Assembly: GCA_000992395.1 (NCBI GenBank)
Contig: LBUD01000002.1
Span: forward strand, 1-38,006
Direction of reading: 5' to 3'
Length of the DNA stretch: 38,006 nt
DNA from: Parcubacteria group bacterium GW2011_GWA2_38_13
GTDB lineage: Bacteria; Patescibacteriota; Patescibacteriia; Buchananbacterales; GWA2-38-13
The first letter of the stretch is position 1. Each line of letters begins with the position of its first letter. Positions 5,916 to 37,396 of the stretch are shown here, in pieces. The position numbers and the translations under genes are program-made. The notes beneath the pieces were generated by a model that was not told the DNA's origin, did no database searches, and worked only from the letters and a program-made list of their open reading frames with translations.

Positions 5916-7544
5916 TATTGCCACCTCTCCACTATCAAATACCGTGGAGAGGTATTTTTTTTCTTCAGGACTATATTTCCCAAGCATTTTTTCTCGAGAG
6001 CCGTAATATATATGCGTTATGCCATAATTTCGCAAAAACTCAAACTTCTCATTATCAAAAATGTTATCTTGAAAAAATTTTTGCACTTTTTTTTCCTTAT
6101 CTGAAAAATATAATGTTTCTACCGCGTGGCCTGCAAAAACTGTTTTCCCGCTTATCCCAGAAATAAAATGCGCAGAATTTACATCAGCTAAAATCCGCAC
6201 CGTGTCTTCAGGTCGATCTGACAACCACTGCATAGACAATTTCTCTTTTTGAGAAATATATACAGAGGGATTTGCTTCTATGGATAGCGCGATATCTCTT
6301 GCCCAGACAAATACATTTGATGCCCCGAAAAGCATTGCTAAAATATAAATAGCAGCAACCGGATTATTAAAAATATATTTTTTTATAAAAACGCTTTTTA
6401 TAGTATTTTCTATCCTTGGATATAGATACCAAAGATATTCAAAAGCAAAAAATATCAGCGGAATGGATAGCCCTTCCACCATTCTTCTTTGAAAATTGAA
6501 AGGCAAATAAATTATAATTATCTGCGCAACAAGCCAAATGAGTAAAAATATTTTTATATCGTCCTTTTCTTTTTGCTTTAAAAATCTATATATTCCGCAT
6601 ACGCCAAATATGAATAAAAATCCGTAACTTAAGAGAATCAAATGTGGCATCGGGGTTAAGTTAATATTTTGCTCAGCGCGCACACGCGAAACAATATCAT
6701 TTGTCATTATAAACGCGTAATATAAAAGCATTGGCGCGGAAATTAGCAGGATAATAGCTCCTTGATAAAACGCGCGAATATTTTGTTTGTTTTTCGTAGC
6801 AAACAAATATAGTATATGCGAAAAAATAACCGCGCATATAATTGGAAATAAAAATGGATGAAAACTTAGAAGCAAAAGCGATAAAGCCCCTGCAATAACA
6901 CAATAAATAAATTTTTGTCTTTCCAGCCCGACCAGATACAATAAAAAAATTATTACCAATAGCGCAAGGGATAAAACCATATGCCCGGAGTGAAGCATTG
7001 ATAAAAATATATTGGATTCGGCAACCCACACATCCATTGGTTTTCCATAGTACCCGCCGTCCATGTCAACATTCGCAAATAATGGCTCAAGGTAAGCCCC
7101 GACGCCTGATGCAAAACACAGAAATAAAAAAAAGAATTTCCTTTTATTCAACTCTCTATATAAATAACTTGCAAAAACATACAGCGTAAATAATAAAATT
7201 GGAATAGCGGCTATCCGCGCCGCGTGAAATGCCAAAATCGGCGAAAAGGAAAAAACTTTTCCGATCATGCCGGCAAAATTCCAAAAAGTATTTATTATAT
7301 TATATCGGGTTGATTCTGTAGTATATAAATCCCGATACAGAAAATGTCCCTTGTAAGTTTCCAAAATATTGGAAAAATAAACGTGATAATCCCCCGGCGC
7401 CAAACTATGAATGCCGGTAAAATATGCATCCTTGGGAGCATACATATAACCAAAAACAAACGGTATGGATGTACATACGATAATAATACCGGCAATAAGC
7501 CCGACAAACCACCACTCGCTTTTTGTGATTTTTATACCGAACAT
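5892..7544 (-). CDS. GT-C-like polytopic membrane glycosyltransferase-type protein
   Basis: 550 aa, many TM segments, soluble C-terminus with ITHIYYGSREK as in the paralogous GT-C proteins here. Confidence 0.6.
   Translation of the reverse strand: MFGIKITKSEWWFVGLIAGIIIVCTSIPFVFGYMYAPKDAYFTGIHSLAPGDYHVYFSNILETYKGHFLYRDLYTTESTRYNIINTFWNFAGMIGKVFSFSPILAFHAARIAAIPILLFTLYVFASYLYRELNKRKFFFLFLCFASGVGAYLEPLFANVDMDGGYYGKPMDVWVAESNIFLSMLHSGHMVLSLALLVIIFLLYLVGLERQKFIYCVIAGALSLLLLSFHPFLFPIICAVIFSHILYLFATKNKQNIRAFYQGAIILLISAPMLLYYAFIMTNDIVSRVRAEQNINLTPMPHLILLSYGFLFIFGVCGIYRFLKQKEKDDIKIFLLIWLVAQIIIIYLPFNFQRRMVEGLSIPLIFFAFEYLWYLYPRIENTIKSVFIKKYIFNNPVAAIYILAMLFGASNVFVWARDIALSIEANPSVYISQKEKLSMQWLSDRPEDTVRILADVNSAHFISGISGKTVFAGHAVETLYFSDKEKKVQKFFQDNIFDNEKFEFLRNYGITHIYYGSREKMLGKYSPEEKKYLSTVFDSGEVAIYKVNPKF
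5923..5962 (+). terminator. Rho-independent terminator for the plus-strand gene, inside the convergent minus-strand CDS
   Basis: ACCTCTCCAC (5923-5932) / GTGGAGAGGT (5944-5953), 11-nt loop, followed by A and T8. Confidence 0.75.
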
Positions 7545-7559
7545 ATTTTTATATATAGC

Positions 7560-13949: not shown

Positions 13950-16247
13950 TTATTTAATTTTATATATGCAATAATAATTATTTATGCATTGCATCTCTTC
14001 CAAGTATAAATTTTTAAATTCTTCAAAAACTCCGATTTTTTTTAGAAAGGGATATCGCTCAATGGAATCCGTGAACGATTTCATTTCTTCGTAATCATTC
14101 CGTGCAAACACAATATGAGTAATTCTTTGACGCACAAAGACATCCCTAAGTTCTTGAAGATTTTTGGATTTATCCAGAGCCTCAATCCAATACATTCCAA
14201 AGTTATCGGCTATGACATGCTTATCCCATTCATAGATACTCGCTGTTAATGAACTCGGAAACATAAGTATCAACGATTCTTTGTCTTTATGAATAATAAC
14301 ATTATTTATATATTGTGGAAACAAAACAATTGTTTCGCCTCCTGGATATTTTTTAAAATCAACCGTTGATATATTCTGGCTGTTAATAATATGCGGCTGC
14401 CAGCCCATCAAGAAAAAGGAAAAAAATAAAGTGCGTAAGGAAAAAACAATTATTAAAATATGGAGCATGGCCGCAATCCTGCTTTTTTCCATTTTTTCCA
14501 AATACCATGCGCAGAAAATGAATAAAAAATATAATAGTGGCAATGCATACCAAGCCCGCTCGTATCCTTTCATATACCATATCGAAAAATATATGCCCGA
14601 CAGGGCTAATAGCGCGACAAGGTTTTTATCTTTATAATATTTCTTAATAAAAAAATGTAAAAGGAAAAACGGGAGAAATATGAGCAGGAAGGGGCCGATT
14701 TCGGCATAAAGAAAATTAAACCCTTTTTGATTTATCGTAACATTCCAAAGCGTCCAAAAAAAATTAATTAATTTGGAATCGCTAATGTTGTTTTGGCGGG
14801 TAAGCGCCGTATAATCATCCGGATTCCTGTAAATATAATCCGTCTTGGAATAGATATCGTATGCGGTAACGCGCCTATGGGATGCAAATATATTTTCATT
14901 ATTATTGGCGACTATTTTGAATCGGAACGGCGCCAAAGGATTGCCGTAATAATATATATTGTAGAAAAACATTGGAAGAAGCGCGACGAGCGCGAATACA
15001 AAATACAAAATATATTGCCTCAATGGTATTTTTCTAAAAAATAAAAAGATGCTTAAAAGCATGAAAATTGTTAATGCCAAAAACAAACCATTCATTTTAA
15101 TATGGATAGTGAGCCCTAAAAAAACAGCCGAGAGATAGAGCCATTTGGATTCTTTGGAATGTAACCACTGAAAAATGCAATATATTGATAAAATGGAAAA
15201 AAATACCAGAATAAAATCTATCTTCTGTGTGTTGACGAATACAACATGCAGTGGCACGAAAGCTGCTAAAAAAATCGTAATAAAAGCAATTTTTTGAGAA
15301 AAAAATCTCTTGGTAAATAGATAGAGCAGAAAAAGCGAAAGCCATAAAAACAGCCATGATAGGGAAAAATTATAGTTGGGTGATAATATCGTATTCACTG
15401 CGGCATAGAATGGCATTGTTATGCCACTCGTCATGGCTGCTATGGAATTATATAATGGAACGGCGCCATGATAATGCGAAAATAATATTGGCACGCTGTA
15501 ATATATATCAAGATCGTCAAGATCTGAGGAAAAATATCTAAATGTTTGTATAAAAGTAAAAATAATAAATAACACCACAATGCATGCACCGATAATAAAC
15601 AAATTTTTCTGATTGCAAAAACAATCGGGAATTCGGAATTCAATTTTGTGATGGAATAATATGTTGCAATAATATCTCATCTCTTTACGGCACAGAAAAA
15701 TTATGGCAAGTGCCAAAAACACAATATTCCAAAAATATAGCAGCGTAAGCGTTCCAAGCGCAAACGAAATGAAAAGCATTCCCAGAAATCCCGCCCCGAA
15801 AGAAAACGCCACTTCTTCCGATAAGCTATCGAATTGAAAACGGAAAGAATCAAGTATTTTTTTCCCGAACGATATGGCGGTTGCTACAAGAGCGCAAATA
15901 AACAACAACCTTAAAAAAACCGCAAGAAAAATATGCGCCCAGGATGAAAAAATTAGTCCGATACTATATTTTGGATAATTATCGGAAAATCCCACATTGA
16001 AAAGAAATGAAAAAAATAAGGTAAATAAAAATATTATCAATAACGCCCCCCACATTGGAAAAATTTTCTGAAAATGTATTCTTATATGCCATTTTTTATA
16101 TATAATCTTATACATTGTGTAAAAAATCATCACAACGCACAGAGCATAAATAGTAACATCAATATTTCTGCGAAAATGAAAAAAGATGTAACCGGAATAC
16201 ACAAAAATAAACCAAAATAAAAAAAATATTGATTTAATTTTTATCAT
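13950..16247 (-). CDS. GT-C/PMT-like polytopic membrane glycosyltransferase (paralog 1)
   Basis: 765 aa, SDLDDLDIYYSVPILFSHYHGAVPLYNS, many TM; similar along its length to 16267-18597. Confidence 0.65.
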   Translation of the reverse strand: MIKIKSIFFLFWFIFVYSGYIFFHFRRNIDVTIYALCVVMIFYTMYKIIYKKWHIRIHFQKIFPMWGALLIIFLFTLFFSFLFNVGFSDNYPKYSIGLIFSSWAHIFLAVFLRLLFICALVATAISFGKKILDSFRFQFDSLSEEVAFSFGAGFLGMLFISFALGTLTLLYFWNIVFLALAIIFLCRKEMRYYCNILFHHKIEFRIPDCFCNQKNLFIIGACIVVLFIIFTFIQTFRYFSSDLDDLDIYYSVPILFSHYHGAVPLYNSIAAMTSGITMPFYAAVNTILSPNYNFSLSWLFLWLSLFLLYLFTKRFFSQKIAFITIFLAAFVPLHVVFVNTQKIDFILVFFSILSIYCIFQWLHSKESKWLYLSAVFLGLTIHIKMNGLFLALTIFMLLSIFLFFRKIPLRQYILYFVFALVALLPMFFYNIYYYGNPLAPFRFKIVANNNENIFASHRRVTAYDIYSKTDYIYRNPDDYTALTRQNNISDSKLINFFWTLWNVTINQKGFNFLYAEIGPFLLIFLPFFLLHFFIKKYYKDKNLVALLALSGIYFSIWYMKGYERAWYALPLLYFLFIFCAWYLEKMEKSRIAAMLHILIIVFSLRTLFFSFFLMGWQPHIINSQNISTVDFKKYPGGETIVLFPQYINNVIIHKDKESLILMFPSSLTASIYEWDKHVIADNFGMYWIEALDKSKNLQELRDVFVRQRITHIVFARNDYEEMKSFTDSIERYPFLKKIGVFEEFKNLYLEEMQCINNYYCIYKIK

Positions 16248-16266
16248 TTTTTTATATAATAATTTA

Positions 16267-18597
16267 CTATTTTTTTATTTCGTACACACAATCATGTCCC
16301 TCAGTGCAAAAATCTTGTATAAGGTATGTATTCTTAAAATCTTCAAACAATTCCAAATTTTTTACAATTTGGTATTTTTTATCGTCTTTATCAGCAAAAG
16401 ATTTTATCCAAGAATAAAAACTATTAGAAAAAAATATATGCGTAATGCCTTGTTGTATAAAAATATCTTTTATCTCTGAAAAAGAATAATTTTCTTCAAC
16501 CAAGTAGCTCCAATACATTGCCCAGTGATCGGATATAATATGCTTATCCCATTGTTGTATTGTTCCCGTCCTTGATTCCGGCATCATAAGAATCAAAGAA
16601 TTTTTATTTTTTGCAATAATATTTTTATTAATATGTTCATATAAAGATAGCAGGAGTCGGCTTTGAGGAAATTTTGCTAAATTTTGATTTGAAATATTTG
16701 GAGTATTTATTATATGCGGTTGCGAGTCCATGAAGAAAAAAGAAAAAAACAAGGAACGCATGGCAAAAATAAGTATTAATATATAAGAAATAGCCTTTAT
16801 TTTACTATTCTCCATTTTTTCCAGATACCGGGCGCAGAAAATAAAAAGAAAATATAATATGGGCAATGCATACCAAGCACGTTCGTATCCTTTCATATAC
16901 CATATCACAAAATATATGCTTGATAAAACTAATAACGCAACAAGGCTTTTATCTTTGTAATATTTTCTAGCAAAAAAATGCAAAAGAAAAAAAGGAAAAA
17001 ATATAAGTAAAAACGGACCAATCTCCGAATAGATATAATTAAATCCCTTCTGGTTTATCGTAATATTCCACAACAACCAAAAAAAGTTTATTATCCTTGA
17101 ATTACTTGCATTATTTTGGCGAGTAATGGCGGTAATATCGTCCGACCTTCGAAAAATATAATCGGTTTTGGAATAGATGTCGTATGTAGTTACGCGTTCT
17201 TGGAATTTGAATATATTTTCGGTATTATGGCTAAATAATTTAAAACGAAATGGCGCTAGAGGGTTATGGTAATAGTACATATTGTAGAAAACCATGAGAA
17301 TAAGCATGGCGCCAGCAAATATAAAATATACAAGATAGTGCTTCAAGGATATTTTTCTTAATAATAAAAAAATACTTAACAAAATAAATATAGATAATGC
17401 CAAAAATAATCCGTTCATTTTTATATGAATCGTGAGGCCTAAAAAAATAGCCGAAAGATAAAGCCATTTGGATTCTTTGAAATTTAACCATTGAAAAATG
17501 CCATAGACGGATAGAATAGAAAAAAATACCAATATAAAATCAATTTTCTGGGAATTAATAAAATTAATATTAAGCGGAACAAACGCGGAAATAAATAGGG
17601 TTATAAATGCGATTTTTTGAGAAAAAAATTTTTTTGTAAAAACATAAAACAGAAAAAGCGAAAGCCATAAAAACAGCCAGGATATGGAAAAATTGTAATA
17701 AGGTGATAACAAGACATTTATCGTTGTATAATATGGCATTACTATACCGCCAACAATCGCTGATACAGAATTATATGTTGGCACCATCCCATGATAATCG
17801 GCAAAAAGAAGCGGAACGCTGTAATATATATCCAAATCATCGTATTCTGTTGGAACAAGATACAGTGTCTGGATAAAGGTAATAAGAAAAAACAAGCTTA
17901 AAAAAATATAACCCCATGCAACAATATTTTTTTTATCTGAAAAATTATCTGAAAGCTGTATTGAAATTTTTTGCAGTAACAAATTTTTCCATAAAAAATA
18001 AATTTCGTTTTTGCATATCAATACTATGGCAATAAGCGCGAATATAATATACCAAAAATATAATATTCCAAGCGTTCCCATGAAAAATGAGATGAAAAGC
18101 ATTGTCAACGTGCCGGCACCAAAAGAAAAAATATATTCCGTGGTAATGTCTTGAAAAGAAAAATTAAGCTTGCGCAGAATTTTCCTGCCCAAAGACGCTG
18201 ATACAATACATAGGGCAGACAAAAACAATGCCCGCGAAAACATTGTTTTAAAAATAAATATCCAGTGTACAAATATCTGCGATATACCGGATTTCAAGCC
18301 ATCCCCATACGGTATACTTAAAAAACAAGCAATTATATATGCAACAAGGAACAAAAGGACTACTGCCTTCCATAAAGATATATTTATTTGCCAGCGAATC
18401 TTCAATCCAATTTTTTTAATAACGAATTTGTAAAATAAATATAATACCAACAATAGAACAGCATTAAAGAAAAAAAAATGGATGCTATCGTGAAAATATA
18501 AATAAGAAAAATATACAAAACAAAACCACGCCAAAAAAATCATTTTACCCGCGCTTTTCATAATCCATTTTTTTAATTTTTGAAAGTATTTCTTCAT
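16267..18597 (-). CDS. GT-C/PMT-like polytopic membrane glycosyltransferase (paralog 2)
   Basis: 776 aa, EYDDLDIYYSVPLLFADYHGMVPTYNS, SQKIDFILVFFSILSVYGIFQWLNFKESKWLYLSAIFLGLTIHIKMNGLFLAL nearly identical to paralog 1. Confidence 0.65.
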   Translation of the reverse strand: MKKYFQKLKKWIMKSAGKMIFLAWFCFVYFSYLYFHDSIHFFFFNAVLLLVLYLFYKFVIKKIGLKIRWQINISLWKAVVLLFLVAYIIACFLSIPYGDGLKSGISQIFVHWIFIFKTMFSRALFLSALCIVSASLGRKILRKLNFSFQDITTEYIFSFGAGTLTMLFISFFMGTLGILYFWYIIFALIAIVLICKNEIYFLWKNLLLQKISIQLSDNFSDKKNIVAWGYIFLSLFFLITFIQTLYLVPTEYDDLDIYYSVPLLFADYHGMVPTYNSVSAIVGGIVMPYYTTINVLLSPYYNFSISWLFLWLSLFLFYVFTKKFFSQKIAFITLFISAFVPLNINFINSQKIDFILVFFSILSVYGIFQWLNFKESKWLYLSAIFLGLTIHIKMNGLFLALSIFILLSIFLLLRKISLKHYLVYFIFAGAMLILMVFYNMYYYHNPLAPFRFKLFSHNTENIFKFQERVTTYDIYSKTDYIFRRSDDITAITRQNNASNSRIINFFWLLWNITINQKGFNYIYSEIGPFLLIFFPFFLLHFFARKYYKDKSLVALLVLSSIYFVIWYMKGYERAWYALPILYFLFIFCARYLEKMENSKIKAISYILILIFAMRSLFFSFFFMDSQPHIINTPNISNQNLAKFPQSRLLLSLYEHINKNIIAKNKNSLILMMPESRTGTIQQWDKHIISDHWAMYWSYLVEENYSFSEIKDIFIQQGITHIFFSNSFYSWIKSFADKDDKKYQIVKNLELFEDFKNTYLIQDFCTEGHDCVYEIKK

Positions 18598-23476: not shown

Positions 23477-23618
23477 CAGTATATTAAATCCGAAATACTA
23501 ATTTCGAAAATCGAAACAATGTTTAATAATTAAAATTCTAAACAATGTATATGATTTGAATTTAGGATTTATGATTTGTTTCGGATTTCGGGCTTCGAAT
23601 TTAGTATTTAATCAATTT
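23477..23618. repeat. Family B degenerate inverted repeat
   Basis: aaatccgaaatactaatttcgaaaatcgaaac ... atttgaatttaggatttatgatttgtttcggatttcgggcttcgaatttagtatttaatcaattt; near copy at 24690-24831. Confidence 0.65.
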
Positions 23619-24689
23619 ATGGATAAAAAAGTCCAAAAACTTATTGAAACCAGCATACAAATAATCAAAGACGCCTCTTTGGAAAATGGAGCGATTGTCG
23701 CGGCGAATTCTGATAAAGAATATTATCCGCGGCAAGCAAAAGACTATCATTATGTTTGGCCGCGCGATGCCGCCTATATCTGCGTAGCCGCTCAAATGGC
23801 AGGAATACGCACCATTCAAGAACCATTTTTTCATTGGTTGAATTATCGTCCGGAAAATTTTAAAAAAGAAGGGCTTTTATTTGCCAATTATTCGACCAAT
23901 GGACGGATGGAAGTTGATCAATTCCAGCCGGATCAGGCAGGATCCGTGTTATGGGCTATTTATAATTTTTACAAAGATGATTTGGCGAAAGCGGAAAAAC
24001 AAGAAGTTGTAATCCGAAGGCTTGCTGACGGGCTTTGCTCGGAGTGGCGCGGAAAATATTTTTTTAAAAATACCGTAGACCTTTGGGAAGAAAGCAATAG
24101 AAAAACATCGACAAGAATGGAAAATAACCACACGTATTCTTTGGCAGCTTGCGCCAAGGGGTTGCTTTTAGCCCACAAGATGCTGGGAAATATTGAATGG
24201 GAAGACGTAGCGCGCCAAATGATTGAAAGAATCGACGATTCGTATGATCATAAACAAAAACGTTTTTTGCGTAATCACGGCAGAATTGATGACCCAAATA
24301 TTGACGCCTCATTGCTTGGACTTACATACCCATTTGAAATCATCCTTCCCGATGATGCGCGGATGATTCAAACCGTTAGCGCTATTGAAAAAAATATCAC
24401 AATCAACGGAGGCGTGCATCGATTCCAATTTGATTACTATGACGGAGAAGGATCGGCCCAGGAAGGCGCAGGAGCATGGCCCATATTGAATTTTTGGATG
24501 TCAATTTACTACTCTTTACGAAACGACCGAAAAAAATCAGAGGCATATTTTATGTGGGTAGTAGAAAAAATAAAAGACGATTACATGATTCCGGAACAAA
24601 TATTTTCCGATTTTCGCGAAGGCATTCGCCCATTAGTGTGGTCGCATGCGATGTTTCTCATTGCTTCAAAATATTTAGGATACCTATAA
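23619..24689 (+). CDS. GH15-like glycoside hydrolase (glucoamylase/trehalase-type)
   Basis: DYHYVWPRDAAYICVAAQMAG, LWEESNRKTSTRMENNHTYSLAACAKG, DASLLGLTYPF, GEGSAQEGAGAWP. Start set to ATG 23619, because ORF start 23556 lies within the repeat. Confidence 0.8.
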   Translation: MDKKVQKLIETSIQIIKDASLENGAIVAANSDKEYYPRQAKDYHYVWPRDAAYICVAAQMAGIRTIQEPFFHWLNYRPENFKKEGLLFANYSTNGRMEVDQFQPDQAGSVLWAIYNFYKDDLAKAEKQEVVIRRLADGLCSEWRGKYFFKNTVDLWEESNRKTSTRMENNHTYSLAACAKGLLLAHKMLGNIEWEDVARQMIERIDDSYDHKQKRFLRNHGRIDDPNIDASLLGLTYPFEIILPDDARMIQTVSAIEKNITINGGVHRFQFDYYDGEGSAQEGAGAWPILNFWMSIYYSLRNDRKKSEAYFMWVVEKIKDDYMIPEQIFSDFREGIRPLVWSHAMFLIASKYLGYL

Positions 24690-24831
24690 CATAAATCCGA
24701 AATCCTAATATCGAAATTCGAAACAAATTCAAAACTTAAAATTTTAAATACTAAACTTTTATATTATTTGAATTTAGGATTTATGATTTGTTTCGGATTT
24801 CGTGCTTCGAATTTAGAATTTAATCAATATT
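24690..24831. repeat. Family B degenerate inverted repeat
   Basis: aaatccgaaatcctaatatcgaaattcgaaacaaattc ... atttgaatttaggatttatgatttgtttcggatttcgtgcttcgaatttagaatttaatcaatatt, abutting the glgA ATG. Confidence 0.65.
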
Positions 24832-26322
24832 ATGTCCAAACCCTTAAAAATAGTAAGCATATCGTCAGAAGTCGATCCGTATTCAAAATCGGGCGGGCTT
24901 GCTGATGTTGCGCGATCCCTTCCTCGCGCGCTTAAGCGTCTGAAGCATAAAATAATCGTCATAACACCGCTTTATTCCCAGGTTACAGATATAAAAAAAT
25001 ATGAACTGAAAAAAATATTCAGCGATGTTAAGCTTGCGGTCAGCCAGGACGTGTTTATGGAAGCGAATTTTTGGCAAGGGGAGCTCATGAAAGGATTGCC
25101 GATTTATTTTGTGGAAAACAATAAATATTTTGGAAAAAATAAAAATATATACGGATCGCAGCATGAAAATGCCCGCTTTTTCTTTTTTGACGTCGCAGTT
25201 ATCGAGCTTATTAAATTATTAAATTTTGAGCCGGACATAATACACTGCCATGATTGGCATACCGGACTTATTCCATATTTTTTAAAAGGGCGGTATAAAT
25301 CCGATCCGATTTTTACACGCACCGCGACGATATATACCATACATAATCTGACATTTCAGCTTGGGCAAAATTGGTGGGAAATTCCTTCCAATTTAAAAGA
25401 TGACGGCAGAACCCCATTACCGAAATTTGAGCATTCACCGGCAGTTGAGCGGATAAATTTTGCAAAAAGAGCTATAATGAAGGTTGATCTCATAAATGCT
25501 GTTTCTGAAAATTATGCGAAAGAAATTCTCACTAAAGATTTTGGCGAAGATCTGAACATCATACTAAAAAACAGGAAAGAAAAGCTGTTTGGAATAGTTA
25601 ATGGTATTGATTATAATGATTATAACCCCTTAACCGACCCCGGCCTGAAACAAAATTACGGGCCGCAGACAGTGAGCGATAAATTTAAAAATAAAGAATA
25701 TCTGCAAAAATATTTTGAATTGCCACTAAGGCGCGAAGTTCCAATACTTGGAATGGCCACGAGAATAACCGAGCAAAAAGGGTTTGATCTTCTTATGAAA
25801 ATATTTGATGATCTCATGACCTTGGATATCCAGTTTGTCATTATGGGCTCAGGAGATAAGGCCTATGAAAAATTTTTCGTTGATATGAAAAAAAAATATC
25901 CTGAAAAAGTTGGGCACCACCTTGAATTTGATACAAAAAACGCTTCCCTTATTTACGCCGGCTCGGATATCTTTCTTATGCCCTCGCGTTTTGAGCCATG
26001 CGGACTTGGCCAGCTTATCAGCCTGCGCTACGGATGCATTCCCGTAGTGCGCGCCACAGGCGGGCTTGTGGACACCATCACTGATTTTAATCCCAATACC
26101 GGCAAAGGGAACGGCTTTGTCTTCCATAAATACGATTCAAAGGCCTTTCTTATCGCATGCACAAGAGCCATAGAGACATTCAGGCACGAAAGCGTATGGT
26201 CAAAGCTTATACAAAACGGCTTCCGTGAATCTTTTTCATGGCGGATCCCCGCGAAAAAATATGTGCTTTTATACAGAAAAGCAATAAAAAATAAACTTTT
26301 ATCAAATAACCATACTGCTTAA
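24832..26322 (+). CDS. glgA: Glycogen/starch synthase (GT5)
   Basis: SSEVDPYSKSGGLADVARSLPRAL, DIIHCHDWHTGLIPYFLKG, IYTIHNLTFQ, AGSDIFLMPSRFEPCGLGQLISLRYGCIPVVRATGGLVDTI. Confidence 0.93.
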   Translation: MSKPLKIVSISSEVDPYSKSGGLADVARSLPRALKRLKHKIIVITPLYSQVTDIKKYELKKIFSDVKLAVSQDVFMEANFWQGELMKGLPIYFVENNKYFGKNKNIYGSQHENARFFFFDVAVIELIKLLNFEPDIIHCHDWHTGLIPYFLKGRYKSDPIFTRTATIYTIHNLTFQLGQNWWEIPSNLKDDGRTPLPKFEHSPAVERINFAKRAIMKVDLINAVSENYAKEILTKDFGEDLNIILKNRKEKLFGIVNGIDYNDYNPLTDPGLKQNYGPQTVSDKFKNKEYLQKYFELPLRREVPILGMATRITEQKGFDLLMKIFDDLMTLDIQFVIMGSGDKAYEKFFVDMKKKYPEKVGHHLEFDTKNASLIYAGSDIFLMPSRFEPCGLGQLISLRYGCIPVVRATGGLVDTITDFNPNTGKGNGFVFHKYDSKAFLIACTRAIETFRHESVWSKLIQNGFRESFSWRIPAKKYVLLYRKAIKNKLLSNNHTA

Positions 26323-30181: not shown

Positions 30182-33025
30182 ATGAAAGATCATCTTCATT
30201 CATACAACACGTGGAGGCACAGCGTTGAACGCAGGCTCCCAGTCTTTGGGAAAAAAAAACGCAATACGCTTGGAAAATTGCGTGCGTTTTTTAAATTTCT
30301 GCTTATACTTTTAGTATTTGGAGCGCTTGCGGGCGCGATTGGTTTTGCTATTTTAATCGCCTGGGTTTCAAAAGATCTTCCTGATCCAAATAAAATTATA
30401 GACCGGCAAGTACCGCTAAGCACAAAAATTTACGATCGATTGGGAACAACGGTGCTGTACGAAGTTCATGGTGCGGAAAAACGTACTATAGTTGAGCTTG
30501 ATGACATCCCAAAATACGCTCAGCAAGCAACATTGTCGGCAGAAGACCGCGAGTTTTATCAGCACAAAGGATTTAGCATAACCGGAATTGTCCGTTCGCT
30601 CATCCGCAATACCCTAACAGGTTCCCGCGTTGGCGGCTCAACCATCACCCAGCAACTTGTTAAAAACGCCATTTTAACAAGCGACAAACAATATACCCGA
30701 AAAGCCAAAGAAATCATATTATCGTACCAAATAGAAAAAAGATTTACTAAGGATGAAATTTTAAAAATGTATTTTAATGAAATACCGTATGGATCTACGA
30801 TTTATGGCATTCAGGCAGCTTCCCAAACCTTTTTCGGCAAGGACGCAAAAGATATAACCCTGGCCGAAAGCGCCATATTGGCGGCAATTCCCCAAAGGCC
30901 TACATATTACTCGCCATACGGCAATAACACGGAAGGGTTGTACAATCGGCAGTGGTGGATCTTAGACAGTATGGCAAAGCTCGGCTATATTTCCGCCGAA
31001 GAGGCTGAGACGGCTAAAAAAGAAAAGGTTGTATTTCGCAAACCAACGGAAAATATCATTGCGCCGCATTTTGTAATGTATATTAAAGAATATTTGAGCG
31101 AAAGATACGGAGAAAAAACTGTCGGCGAAGGTGGTTTGAAAGTCATCACAACGCTTGATTTGGAAAAACAAAAAATCGCCGAAGAAGCCATAACAAAACA
31201 GGCTGAAAAAAATAAAAAATGGGATGCGTCAAATGCCGCGCTTGTGTCGCTTGATACGAAAACCGGGCAAGTGCTTGCCATGGTAGGATCGGCTGATTAT
31301 TTTAATGATGAAATTGACGGCCAGGTGAATGTAACGTTGCGTCCGCGCCAGCCCGGGTCGTCATTTAAACCAATTGTGTATGCGTCCGCCTTTAAAAAAG
31401 GATATACCCCGGACACGGTTGTATATGACGTAGTAACAACGTTTAAAAATACAGACGGAAAACCCTATACTCCATATAATTACAACCTTAAAGAAAATGG
31501 CCCCGTTACCTTGCGCCAGGCGCTTGCGGGATCGCTCAATGTTCCCGCCGTTAAAGTGCTCTATCTTACCGGCATTGATAATGTCTTGGATCTTGCGGAA
31601 AAATTTGGGTATACAACGCTGGAACAGCGTTCAAGATTTGGCCTATCGCTGGTTTTAGGAGGAGCTGAAGTAAAGCTTATTGAACATACCAACGCGTTTG
31701 CCGCGCTTGCACGCGAGGGAGAACTTCATAGTATTGCCCCGGTATTACGGGTTGAAGATAAAGATGGAAGCGTTTTGGAAGAATTTAAAAATGTTGAAAC
31801 AAAGATTATTGAAACACAAATAGCAAGGCAAATCACTTCTATATTATCCGACAACTCCGCAAGGGCTTTTATGTTCGGAGAAAACAATCTTCTCGTCCTT
31901 AAAGACCGTGTAGTAGCGGCGAAAACCGGAACAACAAACGACAATCGGGACGCGTGGATCATCGGATATACTCCAAGCATTGCCACGGGAGTATGGGTTG
32001 GCAATAATGATTTTTCGGAAATGAAAGCGGGCGCTGACGGATCGGTCATTGCCGCTCCTATTTGGAATGAATATATGTCAAAAACGTTGGCGAAAACGCC
32101 GGCTGAAAGTTTTAATGAGCCAAGCCCGGTTATTTCTGATAAGCCGGTGCTAAATGGAAGCATTAAAGACGGCGTAAAAATCGCAATAGACAGAATCACG
32201 GGCAAGCTTGCAACGGAATTTACTCCGCTTGATTTTATTGAAGAAAAAACATTTAAAGAAGTCCATAATATTTTATACTATATTAATAAAGACGACCCGC
32301 AAGGGCCTCCACCCCAAGACCCGGTCCAAGATCCGGAATTTAACGCATGGGAAGCTGCGGTGCAAGAATGGGCAAAGAAAAAAAATATTTCTCCCGAAGA
32401 GCCGCCAAAAGAATATGATGACGTACACACGCTTGAAAATAGGCCGAAGATATCAATTACCTCGCCATGGAACAATCAGACCATGAAAGAGCGCCTATTG
32501 CACGTGGAGGTATCTGCGGAAGCGCCCAGAGGCATACGAAAGGTTGAATATTATCTTGCAGGAAAATTTATTGGAGAAACAACCATATTGCCTTATTATT
32601 TCAATGGAATAATTGATAATAATAATATTCCCAACGGCATATCAACGCTTCGGGTTGTGGCGCTTGATGATGTAGGAAATAGAGATCAGGCGTTCATTGA
32701 TCTTAATTTGGAATTTTCTTCAATTGAAGAGGGAATTGTTTGGTCTAAACCAAACAGCGGAGCCATACTTACAAAAGAAAGCTTCCCCCTTTCTCTTGTT
32801 CTTGAAGTTAGAAGGCCGGAAAATATTGATAGCGCGTATTTCTATGTTGAAAAATCAGATGCTTCAAAAATATATATCAATACCACAAGACTTCCCGCAA
32901 CCAATACCATCGCTACTCAATGGACTTCGTACCCGGGCGCGGGAATTTATACTTTTTATGTAGTTATTAATAATAAAGATGGCTTCGCCTACCAAAGCGA
33001 TCGGATTATGGTAGAGATAAAATAG
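30182..33025 (+). CDS. Class A penicillin-binding protein (GT51 + transpeptidase) with C-terminal Ig-like extension
   Basis: TLSAEDREFYQHKGFSITGIVRSL...GGSTITQQLVKN (GT51), RPRQPGSSFKPIVY (SxxK), SLNVPAVK (SxN), AAKTGTTNDNRDAW (KTG), then ISITSPWNNQTMKERLLHVEVSAEAPRGIRKVEYYL. Confidence 0.93.
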   Translation: MKDHLHSYNTWRHSVERRLPVFGKKKRNTLGKLRAFFKFLLILLVFGALAGAIGFAILIAWVSKDLPDPNKIIDRQVPLSTKIYDRLGTTVLYEVHGAEKRTIVELDDIPKYAQQATLSAEDREFYQHKGFSITGIVRSLIRNTLTGSRVGGSTITQQLVKNAILTSDKQYTRKAKEIILSYQIEKRFTKDEILKMYFNEIPYGSTIYGIQAASQTFFGKDAKDITLAESAILAAIPQRPTYYSPYGNNTEGLYNRQWWILDSMAKLGYISAEEAETAKKEKVVFRKPTENIIAPHFVMYIKEYLSERYGEKTVGEGGLKVITTLDLEKQKIAEEAITKQAEKNKKWDASNAALVSLDTKTGQVLAMVGSADYFNDEIDGQVNVTLRPRQPGSSFKPIVYASAFKKGYTPDTVVYDVVTTFKNTDGKPYTPYNYNLKENGPVTLRQALAGSLNVPAVKVLYLTGIDNVLDLAEKFGYTTLEQRSRFGLSLVLGGAEVKLIEHTNAFAALAREGELHSIAPVLRVEDKDGSVLEEFKNVETKIIETQIARQITSILSDNSARAFMFGENNLLVLKDRVVAAKTGTTNDNRDAWIIGYTPSIATGVWVGNNDFSEMKAGADGSVIAAPIWNEYMSKTLAKTPAESFNEPSPVISDKPVLNGSIKDGVKIAIDRITGKLATEFTPLDFIEEKTFKEVHNILYYINKDDPQGPPPQDPVQDPEFNAWEAAVQEWAKKKNISPEEPPKEYDDVHTLENRPKISITSPWNNQTMKERLLHVEVSAEAPRGIRKVEYYLAGKFIGETTILPYYFNGIIDNNNIPNGISTLRVVALDDVGNRDQAFIDLNLEFSSIEEGIVWSKPNSGAILTKESFPLSLVLEVRRPENIDSAYFYVEKSDASKIYINTTRLPATNTIATQWTSYPGAGIYTFYVVINNKDGFAYQSDRIMVEIK

Positions 33026-33040
33026 TTTTAAATATATATA

Positions 33041-33088
33041 AAATCTAAAAAAACTTCCTCAAAATATTGGAGGAAGTTTTTTAGATTT
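33041..33088. terminator. Bidirectional terminator between pbp (+) and abiEii (-)
   Basis: aaatctaaaaaaacttcctc / gaggaagttttttagattt with a short loop; A- and T-rich flanks on both sides. Confidence 0.8.
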
Positions 33089-33097
33089 AAGCAAAGA

Positions 33098-33874
33098 TTA
33101 AAGCTCTACCTGCCTGATGAAGTCGGCAAATAATTTAATCTTTTGGCTATCATTAGGATTAAATAAAAAAGGCGCAACATCATTTGCAATTTCTTCAAAA
33201 TCAACATTCATTGAATAATCCATTAATTTTTCTTTTAACCTTATGCCATCGCCAATGCCGATTTTTTTCTGAAGATACTCGTAATTTGGCTTAGCTTTTT
33301 GCAATAAAAAAATTACATCAAAAAAATCACGTCCTTTGGCGCGCTTGCGATTCAGCGTTGCATAAATTTTTTGCGAAAGAAGCAAGTCGATAGGCGTTAC
33401 ATTAATTTGAGTAAAAATATCAAATTTATTTAAAATTTTTTTTTCCGGCTTATAATCAAATTCTTGCGGCACCGTATCAATTTGAATTATAATCTTTTCG
33501 TCTTTCGCAAACGATAATTCATTATCAAATAAAATTCCCGGCAATTTAATGTAACATCGGAACGCGCCCTTAAATACATTTTTTATCTCGACAACATAAC
33601 CCTGTTTTTCCAGTTCTTTTTTTATCTCATCGGTCAATTCGGAAAATTCCTTTTCGCTTAAGCCAAAATTATCAAAATCCAGGTCTTCGGAAAAACGGGT
33701 GTTGTCATAAAGAATTCTTAATGCCGTCCCGCCTAAAAATGATAGTGTATTTGCGTATTTTGAATTAAAGATTATTTCCAAAATTTCATACTGCAAATAC
33801 TCGCGCAAAATATTCTTTTTAAAAGCGCGTAAATTTTTTGGATAATAATTTTCTATTTTTTTTAAATCAAGCAT
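33098..33874 (-). CDS. AbiEii-type nucleotidyltransferase toxin
   Basis: LSFLGGTALRILYDNTRFSEDLDFDNFGLSEKEF, the nucleotidyltransferase AbiEii/AbiGii toxin signature; DLLLSQKIYATLNRKRAKGRDFFDVIFLL. Confidence 0.88.
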   Translation of the reverse strand: MLDLKKIENYYPKNLRAFKKNILREYLQYEILEIIFNSKYANTLSFLGGTALRILYDNTRFSEDLDFDNFGLSEKEFSELTDEIKKELEKQGYVVEIKNVFKGAFRCYIKLPGILFDNELSFAKDEKIIIQIDTVPQEFDYKPEKKILNKFDIFTQINVTPIDLLLSQKIYATLNRKRAKGRDFFDVIFLLQKAKPNYEYLQKKIGIGDGIRLKEKLMDYSMNVDFEEIANDVAPFLFNPNDSQKIKLFADFIRQVEL

Positions 33875-34484
33875 ACTGAATATGTTCTAAAAATTTATTA
33901 ACTCTTTTCTCCATACTCTTATTTCCAAATTCTTTCAGATATCTCATGAGCCTGGCCTTATCGGCCCTACCCTTAAATTCCTCGCCATTAAATCTCATTT
34001 CACTAAAATCATTTTCTGTCTTCAGGTGCGGATTGAAATAAAAATAATCCAAAACCGCTTTTTCAATTTCAGCAATTTTAAAATTATGCCCCTTGTATTC
34101 AACGAGCTTATATCCGAACATCAATGCCGGCCTGATATGTTTATAAATAAATTTTCCAACAACGGATTCAAAATCATTGGTCTTTTCAGAAGTTACCGAT
34201 GTAATGCCATAGACGCTTTCCGGTATTACATTGTAATGGGAAAATGCCATTTCAAGAGAGATATATGATGGCGAGTAGATTTTATTGGCCATTAAAAACA
34301 GCGCTGATTCGTTAATTTCCAAATCAGAAAAGATGTAATAGCCCCTGCGGATCATTTTTATATAACCCTTGCCTTGCCACTCACTCAATCTTCGTAAATC
34401 AAAGTCAGCTTCAATCTTTCTGACATCCTGAAGACTAAAAATCTTAAATTGTTCCAATTTTTGCTTTAATTCAATAAATTGCAT
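33867..34484 (-). CDS. AbiEi-type antitoxin / transcriptional regulator
   Basis: MQFIELKQKLEQFKIFSLQDVRKIEADFDLRRLSEWQGKGYIKMIRRGYYIFSD (winged-HTH like), SPSYISLEMAFSHYNVIPESVYGITSVTSEKT; 8-bp overlap with abiEii. Confidence 0.85.
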   Translation of the reverse strand: MQFIELKQKLEQFKIFSLQDVRKIEADFDLRRLSEWQGKGYIKMIRRGYYIFSDLEINESALFLMANKIYSPSYISLEMAFSHYNVIPESVYGITSVTSEKTNDFESVVGKFIYKHIRPALMFGYKLVEYKGHNFKIAEIEKAVLDYFYFNPHLKTENDFSEMRFNGEEFKGRADKARLMRYLKEFGNKSMEKRVNKFLEHIQYA

Positions 34485-34497
34485 ATATTCCCGTATT

Positions 34498-34513
34498 ATG
34501 TTATTTTTAACAT
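34498..34513. promoter_or_regulatory. Palindrome upstream of abiEi, candidate operator
   Basis: ATGTTA TTTT TAACAT (extends to TATGTTA/TAACATA), 14 bp upstream of the abiEi start; TATAAT on the minus strand at 34522-34527. Confidence 0.4.
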
Positions 34514-34536
34514 ACTATGGAATTATAATAGCATCT

Positions 34537-34597
34537 ATTCATAAAAATAACAACAAATCTGGTTATGCTTCCTCAAGCATATTAAGGAAGTTTTTTT
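34537..34597 (+). pseudogene. Degenerate remnant of a pbp 3' end plus its terminator (copy R2)
   Basis: ataaaaataacaacaaatctggttatgc (KNNNKSGYA) then cttcctcaagcatattaaggaagttttttt, resembling the pbp terminator cttcctcaaaatattggaggaagtttttt. Confidence 0.5.
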
Positions 34598-34604
34598 ATA
34601 ATAA

Positions 34605-35492
34605 TTATTTTTTGTCATTGTCCGCTCCAATTTTCCAAATATTCTTCTCTAAGAAAGCTTCAATAGTTTGCCGGGTGGCCTTGTTGATCAAATTTGAATG
34701 CGACAGTTTATTTTCTTTAGCATACTCAGCCAGGGTAACAATTTTTTTGCCCTCCAAATATGCCAACCGTTTATGATAGCTATTGGTCAGCGCTTTTCCT
34801 ACTATTTCTTCCATAATTGAAGCCTTGCCTTTCATATCAAACTCTCTAAATGCTTCGTAATACTTCTTCCGATCAATAAATTTGATATTTATCGGAACAA
34901 ACCCCTCGCGGATTAAAGCATAATTATTAATGACTCTCCCGATCCGGCCATTGCCATCGCAAAACGGATGGGTATATTCAAAAGTCAAATGCAGCTTTGC
35001 AATACGGTTGATAATATTTTCATAGTTCGTCGCATTATATTCAGCTAACATTTTTTCCAACCGATCCGCCACTTCTTTTGGATTGGGAGCAATATGATTT
35101 CCAACCCGCACAAATTCGTTATCTTTCCTAAATCTGCCGGCGATGTCATCCCGTATGTTAGAAATTAGCATTTTATGCAGAGACAAAATCACTTCCAAAG
35201 AAAGCTCTTGTTCTTTGGCTCTTGTATCAATATACGATACGACCCTGGCCAAATTTTTGGCTTCAAAAATTTCTCGTTCAGTAATATATCTGTCCAAATC
35301 AATTTGCAACAATATTTTTTCGGTTTCTTCAAGAGTAAGCGTGCTATTTTCGATGGCGTTGGAGTTATAGACCTGTTCGGCCACTTCGGTTTCCGCGATA
35401 AGCTTAATAAGCGCGTCTTTACCCAAAGACGCTTTATAGTATCTTTCGCGGAGCGAATTTATTTCGTTGAAAACTTTAAGTATTTTTGTCAT
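34605..35492 (-). CDS. Fic family protein
   Basis: HLTFEYTHPFCDGNGRIGRVINNYALI (Fic motif HPFxxGNGRxxR); C-terminal HTH-like region VTLAEYAKENKLSHSNLINKATRQTIEAFLEKNIW. Start set to 35492 because 35510 lies upstream of the predicted TSS. Confidence 0.9.
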   Translation of the reverse strand: MTKILKVFNEINSLRERYYKASLGKDALIKLIAETEVAEQVYNSNAIENSTLTLEETEKILLQIDLDRYITEREIFEAKNLARVVSYIDTRAKEQELSLEVILSLHKMLISNIRDDIAGRFRKDNEFVRVGNHIAPNPKEVADRLEKMLAEYNATNYENIINRIAKLHLTFEYTHPFCDGNGRIGRVINNYALIREGFVPINIKFIDRKKYYEAFREFDMKGKASIMEEIVGKALTNSYHKRLAYLEGKKIVTLAEYAKENKLSHSNLINKATRQTIEAFLEKNIWKIGADNDKK

Positions 35493-35500
35493 ATATAACC

Positions 35501-35543
35501 AGTATACCATTTTTCACGGTTTTGTCAACATAACCGTGAAAAA
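35501..35543 (-). promoter_or_regulatory. fic promoter with embedded 12-bp inverted-repeat operator
   Basis: Minus strand TTGACA (35528-35523), 16-nt spacer, TATACT (35506-35501) with TGG extended -10; perfect arms TTTTTCACGGTT (35510-35521) and AACCGTGAAAAA (35532-35543). Confidence 0.75.
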
Positions 35544-35603
35544 TATATTAAAATCATACCATTTTCATCTTTTTGGCTATAAATCTCCAATAAACTGCAT
35601 ATC

Positions 35604-35678
35604 CCACAGTATGCTAAAAATAACAACAAATATGGTCATACCTACCAAAGCGATCGGATTACGGTAGAGATAAAATGA
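35604..35678 (+). pseudogene. Remnant of a pbp 3' end (copy R3)
   Basis: Encodes PQYAKNNNKYGHTYQSDRITVEIK*, compare pbp end VVINNKDGFAYQSDRIMVEIK*; 35/36 nt identical between 35641-35676 and 32988-33023. Confidence 0.85.
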
Positions 35679-35764
35679 TTTTATTTAGTAAAATTCCGCA
35701 CGAGTGCATGTTTTTGACATAAAAATTACAAAATGCTACCATTAAACTTATAACATCAAATACT

Positions 35765-36094
35765 ATGGATAAAAACAAACAGCATCTCTTATTATCTGAA
35801 GACTTTAAGGGGTTGGCCAAACTTATGAATGGTCGTTTTGATGAGCTTGAAGAAAACCTCAAAACCGAAATTAAACAGTCGTTCAATGAGGTTGATGACC
35901 GATTCAATGGAGCAGATAAACGATTTGATGCAATAGACGAACGATTCGAAAAAGTGGAAAAACGATTCGACAAAATTGATGGAAAACTGGATAAAATTGA
36001 GAAAACTCTAAAAACGAATGAAAAGCGAGACGAGGTTTTCGCCGAGAAGCTTAATCTTGATCTTAAAGCAGTTGACGCAGGAGCTCAAGGATAG
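35765..36094 (+). CDS. Small heptad-repeat coiled-coil protein
   Basis: Consecutive 7-residue units DDRFNGA DKRFDAI DERFEKV EKRFDKI DGKLDKI EKTLKTN. Confidence 0.7.
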   Translation: MDKNKQHLLLSEDFKGLAKLMNGRFDELEENLKTEIKQSFNEVDDRFNGADKRFDAIDERFEKVEKRFDKIDGKLDKIEKTLKTNEKRDEVFAEKLNLDLKAVDAGAQG

Positions 36095-36150
36095 CATCTT
36101 TCGGCAGCATTTGACTCCATACTCATAATCTATAAATACTAAACTATTAC

Positions 36151-36177
36151 AAAAAGACGCTCACTGAGCGTCTTTTT
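36151..36177. terminator. Rho-independent terminator
   Basis: AAAAAGACGCTC ACT GAGCGTCTTTTT, perfect 12-bp stem. Confidence 0.85.
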
Positions 36178-36212
36178 AAATCGTTCCTTATAATCTAATC
36201 CAGTAATTTTAT

Positions 36213-36384
36213 TTATAACTTTCCAACAGGAATCTTCCTTAAATTAATATTTGTTATACCCACCCCTAATATTTTCATAATTCTATATGCCTCGTCGCCA
36301 CCTCTTAAATAATATCTCTATACATGGACTTGATCCGTCTATAACCTGAATAACTATTTTATCAGATCCAGTGTTTTGCAACAT
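36213..36384 (-). pseudogene. Frameshifted small ORF downstream of the methyltransferase
   Basis: Starts 4 nt after the MTase stop: MLQNTGSDKIVIQVIDGSSPCIEI then, after a 1-nt shift, YLRGGDEAYRIMKILGVGITNINLRKIPVGKL*. Length 172 nt = 57 codons + 1. Confidence 0.35.
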
Positions 36385-36388
36385 AAAT

Positions 36389-37396
36389 TTAAGCAATTTG
36401 TAGCTGTATCTGTAAGCCCCCCTTTTCCTGTTTTTCTGTATTTGCTATATTTCTAAATAAATTAGGTTTTTTATCCAATTCGCTTAACCTTCTTTCTGAA
36501 ATTTTTACATATTTTTCGTTCGCATCAATACCAATATAATTTTTCCCTAATTTTTTAGCCGCCACCGCGGTTGTCCCGCTGCCAACAAACGGATCTAACA
36601 CGACCGCATCTTTTGAAAAAGCCGACAATTTAATTAAATATTCACAAATAGCTAAGGGCTTAACGGTTTTATGGTCATTGTAATCTCCTTTTTCTTTTTT
36701 TGTCGGTTTCGGCAACAAAAAAGCTCTATCAATTAATTCGTCTATTTTATCTACTGTAAAAACATTCGCCGGATACATATTATCGCCAATTCTGACATTG
36801 GTATCAAATAAACCGACTTCGTGTTTGAGCATATTTTTAAGATATGTTTGATCAGTTGGCTTCTGAGCCATCGCAATTGGCTCAAAGCATGATTTAATTT
36901 GTGGGGTTTTCCATCCTTTCAATTTTTCTTTAATTTTTTCTTTTGCTTTCTCATCTATATCCATCTTTTTAATAAAGTGATCAACGCCCATTGCTTTGGC
37001 TTGATTTTGAGTATAGAGCCACATAAAAGCGTCTCTGATTTCAAAGCCAGCGTCATCTATAGCAGAAGCCATTCTATGGTATAGTCTAGGGCTGGAAAAA
37101 GAAAAGAAAAAACCACCCGGTTTTAAAATCCTGAAAATTTCCGCTGAAATTTTTAAATACCAAGCGTAAAATTTTTTTCCCTGTTCTCTGTCAAATTTCA
37201 TTCCAGCAGGAAGCGATTTAATTGTGTATTGATTACTTTTATTTGATACTTCTTCATAATCCCAATTATTATCAAGCTTATCTAAAAAATATGGGGGGTC
37301 GGTTAAAACAACATCTATTGAATTGGTTTCAACTCGAGGTAAAAATTCTAAGGTATCAGCACAAATTATATTGTTTATAAATTTATCGTTTTTCAT
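36389..37396 (-). CDS. Site-specific DNA methyltransferase (N6-adenine/N4-cytosine type, DPPY, beta-like motif order)
   Basis: IDVVLTDPPYFLDKLDNNWD (motif IV) near the N-term; AVVLDPFVGSGTTAVAAKKLGKNYIGIDANEKYV (motif I) near the C-term. Confidence 0.9.
   Translation of the reverse strand: MKNDKFINNIICADTLEFLPRVETNSIDVVLTDPPYFLDKLDNNWDYEEVSNKSNQYTIKSLPAGMKFDREQGKKFYAWYLKISAEIFRILKPGGFFFSFSSPRLYHRMASAIDDAGFEIRDAFMWLYTQNQAKAMGVDHFIKKMDIDEKAKEKIKEKLKGWKTPQIKSCFEPIAMAQKPTDQTYLKNMLKHEVGLFDTNVRIGDNMYPANVFTVDKIDELIDRAFLLPKPTKKEKGDYNDHKTVKPLAICEYLIKLSAFSKDAVVLDPFVGSGTTAVAAKKLGKNYIGIDANEKYVKISERRLSELDKKPNLFRNIANTEKQEKGGLQIQLQIA

What the first reader, a model, noticed from the sequence alone, without database searches (positions are those of the whole stretch)
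32965..35678. AbiE and Fic modules sit between graded copies of the pbp 3' end: a stacked-insertion hot spot
The last 36 nt of the class A PBP gene (32988-33023) recur at 35641-35676 with one mismatch. Protein-level similarity extends further upstream (NNKDGFAYQSDRIMVEIK* vs NNKYGHTYQSDRITVEIK*). A third, more decayed copy lies at 34537-34590, between the AbiE pair and fic (KNNNKSGYA, 17 identical nt with the 35.6-kb copy), followed by a hairpin resembling the pbp terminator. The arrangement is pbp end / abiE (-) / decayed end + terminator / fic (-) / end. This suggests successive acquisition of toxin-antitoxin-type modules at the pbp 3' end, with the gene end restored each time, as integrative elements do at tRNA 3' ends. 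No integrase is visible, so homologous recombination between related loci is an alternative.
Basis: partly seen in the sequence, partly recalled or inferred. Interest (0 to 1): 0.8.

Follow-up and report, generated by a model that had tools for sequence, protein, structure and literature searches.

The report
Foreign genes inserted at gene ends
In this uncultured dwarf bacterium, foreign gene cassettes (here two toxin-type modules) sit right after the end of a housekeeping gene and are followed by a leftover copy of that gene's end, and the same footprint recurs at seven other genes of the same genome without any integrase, pointing to insertion by ordinary recombination rather than by a mobile element.

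Summary
The repeats are real. The pbp 3' end (32968-33030) recurs at 35621-35683 (83% of 63 nt; 93% of the last 43). A decayed copy with a terminator-like hairpin lies at 34542-34596. A probable remnant of an older abiEi start (about 35550-35602) adjoins the last copy. AbiE and Fic are therefore stacked insertions at the pbp end. Relatives show the gene-order empty site (pbp directly against dnaN in seven loci) and other cargo, HicAB included.

The pattern is not peculiar to pbp. I rebuilt the 1.04-Mb genome and found seven further genes (holA, cvpA, a sortase, a radical-SAM activase, a T2SSE ATPase, an aminotransferase, an unknown) whose last 43-250 nt recur 1-12 kb downstream behind unrelated cargo, always same strand and at the stop codon. 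No gene start or interior does this without being a paralogue. The holA remnant abuts rpsT, its direct neighbour in a relative.

Remnants differ from their genes mainly at synonymous sites, so they are diverged alleles, and exact matches are shorter than the assembler's 99-nt overlap. Two other genomes hold one short case each; a same-order genome has none. No integrase lies in any cargo. Best reading: one-sided homologous integration leaving the displaced native 3' end downstream.

The parts
30182..33025 (+). class A penicillin-binding protein (PBP1A family, C-terminal Big_7 domain); host gene whose 3' end is repeated
   Evidence: Pfam Transgly 9.7e-61, Transpeptidase 6e-22, Big_7 8.5e-10; TIGR02074 2.5e-154
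32968..33030 (+). copy 1: 3' end of pbp in the intact gene (...NNKDGFAYQSDRIMVEIK*)
33044..33086 (+). pbp terminator hairpin
   Evidence: -17 kcal/mol, z -5.6
33098..33874 (-). AbiEii (nucleotidyltransferase toxin, type IV toxin-antitoxin), cargo
   Evidence: Pfam PF08843 4e-20; PADLOC 8.4e-99; patchy in the class, best relative 67% in another family
33867..34484 (-). AbiEi antitoxin, overlaps abiEii by 8 nt, cargo
   Evidence: PADLOC 1e-64
34497..34514 (.). palindrome TATGTTA-TTTT-TAACATA in the abiE promoter, possible AbiEi operator
   Evidence: sequence; function inferred
34542..34596 (+). copy 3: decayed pbp 3' end (NNKSGYA) joined to a pbp-like terminator hairpin
   Evidence: 81% of 37 nt to copy 2; best match in the window 23 vs 13.5; hairpin -7.8 kcal/mol
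34605..35510 (-). Fic-domain protein (closest PADLOC models PDC-S04, SoFic), cargo
   Evidence: Pfam Fic 9e-22; PADLOC 3e-34
35550..35602 (-). probable remnant of an older abiEi start (MQFI...), next to copy 2
   Evidence: score 22.5, 0 of 500 shuffles; best non-self match in window
35621..35683 (+). copy 2: displaced pbp 3' end (NNKYGHTYQSDRITVEIK*)
   Evidence: 83% of 63 nt, 93% of the last 43; shuffles max 30 vs 42.5
35765..37396 (.). genes after copy 2: coiled-coil protein (35765-36094 +) and N6/N4 DNA methyltransferase (36389-37396 -); native neighbour dnaN not reached in this contig

Best explanation
The abiE and fic modules were added one after another, immediately behind the pbp stop codon, by one-sided homologous integration of foreign DNA. 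The incoming piece carried a related bacterium's pbp 3' end followed by cargo. It recombined with the resident gene through that end, so the gene stayed whole (now with the incoming 3' end), the cargo followed, and the resident's own 3' end was pushed downstream as a remnant. The far side was closed without matching homology, either by circularisation of the trimmed fragment and a single crossover, or by homology-facilitated illegitimate joining. Shown: several pbp-end copies; a probable older abiEi start; the same footprint at seven further genes of this genome; coding-type divergence of the remnants; a remnant beside the native neighbour (holA/rpsT); no integrase in any cargo scanned. Inferred: the donor, the route of DNA entry, the crossover and its order, and the cause of the 3' bias (in a compact genome an insertion behind a stop codon harms neither neighbour).
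For: (1) Eight genes in this 1.04-Mb genome have a partial 3' duplicate, same strand, 1-12 kb downstream, behind unrelated genes; no gene start or interior does so without being a paralogue, dispersed repeat or contig-end overlap. (2) Empty sites by gene order: holA abuts rpsT in relative G008, whereas here 9.3 kb of cargo precedes a 57-nt holA remnant and then rpsT; cvpA-tatD are adjacent in G008; pbp-dnaN gaps range from 4 to 6949 nt while dnaN-dnaA stays at 254-316 in all but one measured case. (3) Gene/remnant differences are 42 synonymous to 28 nonsynonymous, 22% synonymous expected, p = 1e-11; without cvpA p = 2.5e-4. (4) Divergence is graded, from about 2% (C38, holA) to about 15% (cvpA) and 17% (pbp). 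(5) Cargo looks foreign: AbiEii patchy in the class, C41 cargo 56% GC against 38%. (6) Two other genomes have a case each: L017 (30 nt around a DUF559 gene) and L072 (35 nt). (7) PMC3240628: a one-end-homology assay in E. coli mostly gave 109-950-bp duplications of the homologous 3' end by single crossover. PMC5361080 proposes stacked displacement by the same kind of event.
Against: No donor locus was found, so crossover points and microhomology cannot be seen. ComEC was not found in this genome or its family member G001, so natural transformation is not supported as the entry route. Remnants (43-250 nt) are shorter than most duplications in the E. coli assay. G008 (818 kb) and the G001 sample (242 kb) show none, so the process is not general in the order. 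The mirror class (5' remnants) is absent and its absence is explained only by selection. The C16 case extends into a dispersed intergenic repeat. A single draft MAG underlies most cases.
Confidence: 0.6

Rival explanations
1. Site-specific integrative elements: each cargo entered through a recombinase that targets gene 3' ends and restores them, the recombinase gene having been lost or acting in trans.
For: Flanking direct repeats ending at the stop codon and restoration of the reading frame are what integrases leave at gene ends (general knowledge); stacked copies at pbp.
Against: No integrase or transposase in the cargo proteins scanned; one Phage_integrase in the assembly, on contig C52, while the order's genomes hold none to five. 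The repeats share no common core among eight sites and differ in length (43-250 nt). Gene and remnant differ along their length at synonymous sites rather than being identical in a core.
Confidence: 0.13
2. Double homologous recombination between related loci that already carry different cargo (the minimal-mobile-element or hotspot model): flanking core genes supply both crossovers, and the 3' remnants are old scars carried along.
For: pbp-dnaN holds different cargo or none in relatives. PMC5635113 reports that many hotspots lack mobile elements and recombine at flanking core genes. A probable older abiEi start beside copy 2 suggests repeated exchange among abiE-bearing loci.
Against: It moves existing arrangements but does not explain how a truncated 3' end arises, at eight genes, always 3' and behind new cargo.
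Confidence: 0.15
3. Assembly artefact: scaffolds chimeric between co-occurring strains, one with and one without the cargo.
For: Single draft MAG with N gaps in 13 contigs; contig ends overlap by exactly 99 nt at 12 termini; a chimera would also put the remnant next to the native neighbour.
Against: No Ns in C2, C38, C16, C4 or C17 and none near the C23 or C41 junctions; the longest exact run in any pair is 21-84 nt, below the 99-nt overlap; pbp and cvpA copies are 15-17% diverged; independent assemblies L017 and L072 show the same footprint.
Confidence: 0.1
4. Decayed tandem paralogues: the host genes were duplicated whole and the second copies eroded to their 3' ends.
For: Tandem paralogues do exist in this genome (C6, C15, C17, C60, window 13950-18597).
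Against: All eight retain only the 3' end, none a 5' or internal piece; the cargo is unrelated; holA and cvpA are syntenic in G008 without a second copy there.
Confidence: 0.02

Closest known systems
Single-crossover products of end-trimmed, recircularised DNA in the E. coli HFIR assay (Amarir-Bouhram et al. 2011, PMC3240628)
   Same: Insert flanked by a partial duplicate of the homologous gene's 3' end (109-950 bp); no site-specific recombinase; RecA-dependent
   Different: Laboratory plasmid DNA by conjugation; here natural cargo at eight chromosomal genes, remnants 43-250 nt, donor alleles diverged
Sequential displacement of T6SS effector-immunity modules in Vibrio cholerae (Kirchberger et al. 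2017, PMC5361080) and Rhs C-terminal displacement
   Same: Upstream homology anchors insertion; displaced 3' ends and old modules stack downstream
   Different: There the displaced piece belongs to a polymorphic toxin locus; here housekeeping gene ends, with cargo unrelated to the gene
[quoted passage not shown]
   Same: Conserved flanking genes, changing cargo, no integrase
   Different: Those need homology on both sides and leave no truncated gene end
Integrative elements at tRNA or protein-gene 3' ends
   Same: Gene end restored, displaced end at the far side
   Different: No integrase, no common core, a different target sequence at every site
AbiE type IV toxin-antitoxin system
   Same: Overlapping abiEi-abiEii pair, both matching PADLOC models
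   Different: Nothing unusual in the pair itself

Membership tests
Site-specific integrative element | Integrase or recombinase gene in the element | tested here: not met
   window cargo genes by Pfam and ten cargo proteins of other sites: no integrase or transposase; the only Phage_integrase of the assembly is on C52
Site-specific integrative element | Direct repeats at the gene 3' end with the reading frame restored | tested here: met
Site-specific integrative element | Common, identical core sequence used at each insertion | tested here: not met
   repeats at the eight genes are unrelated to each other and diverge along their length
Homology-facilitated illegitimate recombination (HFIR) | Homology at one end only | tested here: inconclusive
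   the gene 3' end is shared and the cargo end is not, but no donor locus is available
Homology-facilitated illegitimate recombination (HFIR) | 3-10 bp microhomology at the illegitimate junction | not testable with these tools
   needs the donor sequence
Homology-facilitated illegitimate recombination (HFIR) | Deletion of recipient DNA at the insertion | tested here: not met
   at holA and cvpA the native neighbour is kept and a duplication is present instead
Single crossover of recircularised trimmed DNA (as in PMC3240628) | Full gene - insert - partial duplicate of the gene's 3' end | tested here: met
   eight genes in G000; remnants shorter than most in the assay
Single crossover of recircularised trimmed DNA (as in PMC3240628) | RecA dependence | not testable with these tools
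   needs an experiment
Type IV toxin-antitoxin AbiE | Adjacent abiEi and abiEii genes of the right families | tested here: met
   PADLOC 1e-64 and 8e-99; 8-nt overlap
Type IV toxin-antitoxin AbiE | Toxicity and neutralisation | not testable with these tools
   needs an experiment
Diversity-generating retroelement (considered because 3' gene ends are repeated downstream) | Reverse transcriptase and adenine-specific differences | tested here: not met
   no reverse transcriptase in the cargo scanned; differences are mixed, mostly third positions
Transposon with target-site duplication | Transposase and a duplication of fixed short length | tested here: not met
   no transposase in the cargo scanned; duplications of 43-250 nt, diverged

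The most novel reading that the evidence does not exclude
This lineage has a general, integrase-free way of adding foreign cassettes precisely behind gene stop codons, perhaps through an unrecognised factor, so that gene 3' ends all over the chromosome act as insertion ports that keep the host gene whole; a lineage of small, probably host-dependent bacteria without detected ComEC would thus gain defence and surface genes.
Probability: 0.12. Interest if true: 0.85.

Novelty: new variant of a known kind. Interest (0 to 1): 0.58.

Why it matters
Most gene-gain hotspots lack mobile elements, and how cargo first gets in is rarely visible. Here one reduced genome keeps at least eight scars of graded age, from about 2% to 17% divergence, in which the displaced resident gene end still lies beside the cargo. 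That gives a readable record of how a Patescibacterium acquires genes, and a simple screen (gene end repeated downstream, same strand, synonymous differences) that can be run on thousands of genomes to measure integrase-free insertion.

Tried and rejected
Diversity-generating retroelement (no reverse transcriptase, no adenine bias). Transposon target-site duplication (variable 43-250 nt, no transposase in the cargo scanned). Ku-dependent end joining (no Ku in any of 12 genomes of the order). Natural transformation as the stated route (ComEC found in 7 of 12 genomes but not in this one or its family member). Phage origin of the block (no similar phage record). k-mer overlap artefact (contig overlaps are exactly 99 nt, remnant exact runs 21-84). 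DUF559 cassettes with dispersed repeats on C19 and C63 were excluded from the count because their matches lie in those repeats. A close-relative nucleotide empty site could not be had: the held genomes of the order share only 53-66% PBP identity, so empty sites are by gene order.
Full report
OBSERVATION. The described repeats are present. The last 36 nt before the pbp stop (32988-33023) recur at 35641-35676 with one mismatch, and similarity extends to 32968-33030 / 35621-35683 at 83%. The gapped score is 42.5 against a shuffle maximum of 30. Copy 3 (34542-34578) matches copy 2 better than anything else in the window (23 versus 13.5) and is followed by a pbp-like hairpin. The genes are a PBP1A-family PBP with a Big_7 C-terminus, AbiEii and AbiEi overlapping on the minus strand, and a Fic protein on the minus strand.

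WHAT ELSE IS AT THE SITE. The stretch just before copy 2 (about 35550-35602) is the best non-self match in the window to the abiEi start (34438-34486), reading MQFI... on the minus strand. Copies 2 and 3 therefore probably both once followed an abiE promoter, and an older abiE module seems to have been lost where fic now lies. Copies 1, 2 and 3 all read as coding variants of the same segment: NNKDGFAYQSDRIMVEIK*, NNKYGHTYQSDRITVEIK*, NNKSGYA.

THE SITE IN RELATIVES. In many relatives the pbp end faces dnaN and dnaA. The pbp-dnaN gap is 4 to 119 nt in seven loci and up to 6949 nt in others, while dnaN-dnaA is 254-316 nt in all but one measured case. Cargo differs: HicAB and a DUF262-like gene in G005, a DUF559 gene in L017, a hydrolase in G008, a methyltransferase in L019 (these names come from reading the translations, not from a family search). 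AbiEii is patchy in the class (75 of 286 genomes). Its best relative is 67% identical in another family, and none is found in the window's own family. dnaN and dnaA are not in this assembly, and the contig ends inside the variable interval.

THE FOOTPRINT IS GENOME-WIDE. I took the window's genome by regions (63 contigs, 1,036,202 bases) and scanned it by DNA and by protein. Besides pbp, seven genes have their last 43-250 nt repeated downstream on the same strand behind unrelated genes (identities over the aligned stretch): C38 210-aa protein (106 nt, 98%, 2.5 kb); C23 sortase (91 nt, 96%, 2.4 kb, ending exactly at the stop); C41 radical-SAM activase (129 nt, 90%, 3.6 kb); C4 CvpA (231 nt, 85%, 2.2 kb); C16 T2SSE ATPase (179 nt, 94%, 1.1 kb, partly a dispersed repeat); C17 HolA (57 nt, 98%, 9.3 kb); C23 aminotransferase (43 nt, 95%, 11.6 kb) (families). 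No gene start and no gene interior shows a comparable non-paralogous partial copy. The remaining terminal hits are paralogues, dispersed repeats, a 10-residue match on C61, or 99-nt contig-end overlaps (C15, C62).

EMPTY SITES ELSEWHERE. In G008 (same order) holA lies 15 nt from rpsT, with bactofilin next. Here holA is followed by 9.3 kb that includes radical-SAM and GH3-family genes, then the 57-nt remnant, then rpsT and bactofilin. The intact gene ends ...LLVMR*, the remnant ...LLVMRG*. In G008 cvpA and tatD are 12 nt apart; here cvpA, two genes, the cvpA remnant, a 902-aa gene, then tatD. So the remnant is most likely the resident's native end.

REMNANTS ARE DIVERGED ALLELES. Over the eight pairs there are 42 synonymous and 28 nonsynonymous differences, where 22% synonymous would be expected without constraint (p = 1e-11; without cvpA p = 2.5e-4), and 45 of 70 fall at third positions. 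Most of the divergence therefore arose while both were functional, in different lineages, before the insertion. At pbp the upstream half of copy 2 has also changed conserved residues (DGF to YGH), as expected of an old remnant.

NOT AN ASSEMBLY TRICK, AS FAR AS CAN BE SEEN. Contig ends overlap by exactly 99 nt at 12 termini, which points to an assembler overlap of 99. The remnants' longest exact runs are 21-84 nt. There are no Ns in five of the seven contigs and none near the junctions in the other two. Two independent assemblies show the same footprint: L017 (30 nt around a DUF559 gene) and L072/G002 (35 nt). Read mapping was not possible.

HOW COMMON. G008 (818 kb taken, 52 kb of it masked) and a 242-kb sample of G001 show none; 565 kb of other loci show only the two short cases. 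Eight of 895 genes here against 0 of 1323 elsewhere by the same protein scan gives p = 0.0007. The lineage differs from its relatives in this respect. ComEC was not found here or in G001 but is found in 7 of 12 genomes of the order, Ku in none; with an 83%-complete assembly these absences are weak.

MECHANISM. The geometry full gene - cargo - 3' fragment is what a single crossover leaves when the incoming circle carries only part of the gene's end. In the E. coli test of one-end-homology integration, 56 of 60 clones gave a PCR product diagnostic of that outcome, and sequencing of 14 confirmed duplications of 109-950 bp, while true HFIR was rare (PMC3240628). Stacked displacement by homology-anchored insertion has been proposed for V. 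cholerae T6SS modules and Rhs (PMC5361080). Recombination at core genes flanking element-free hotspots is documented (PMC5635113). I did not find a paper describing this footprint at housekeeping genes across one genome, but the library is incomplete.

VERDICT. The finding is correct as an observation and right in outline: stacked insertions at the pbp end. The integrase analogy is not supported; one-sided homologous integration is favoured. The larger result is that the same scar occurs at eight genes of this genome.

Noticed in passing
G000 assembly, contigs C10, C15, C16, C18, C20, C22, C23, C24, C38, C40, C55, C62: Contig ends share exact 99-nt overlaps with other contigs (e.g. C18-C38, C16-C23, C20-C22, C40-C55), which show the assembler's overlap and allow neighbouring contigs to be ordered.
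   Followed up: yes
L149 and L094 (C23), L112 (C41), L109 (C38), L075/L137 (C4), L088 (C17), L087 (C16): Seven further gene 3' ends repeated downstream behind unrelated cargo; the C41 cargo is a 1140-aa protein with weak PPDK_N and dockerin matches at 56% GC in a 38% GC genome.
   Followed up: yes
L017:10732-11305: A Falkowbacteria MAG has a DUF559-type endonuclease gene between CCCTC/GAGGG-type repeats inserted behind pbp, with a 30-nt copy of the pbp end after it.
   Followed up: partly
L072:1584-1618 and 3426-3460: A 249-aa gene next to bactofilin in G002 has its last 35 nt repeated behind a TrmB-like regulator gene.
   Followed up: partly
C44 4621-4815 / 7360-7554 of G000: A 195-nt, 96% direct repeat lying just downstream of a gene's 3' end, 2.7 kb apart, not overlapping a called gene.
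   Followed up: no
window 23485-23621 and 24692-24834: 144-nt repeat of a dispersed family (about 14 hits in the genome) between genes.
   Followed up: no
C29 8991-10097 and 1054-1143 of G000: A piece coding 30 residues of a 368-aa protein recurs at 100% identity in inverted orientation 7.8 kb away.
   Followed up: no
L019:12890-14779: Two small genes in the pbp downstream interval share nearly identical flanks (66 nt 94%, 57 nt 93%) but different interiors, as if cassettes had been swapped between common flanks.
   Followed up: no
G000 and G001: ComEC (PF03772) not found in either member of the family, though present in 7 of 12 genomes of the order.
   Followed up: partly
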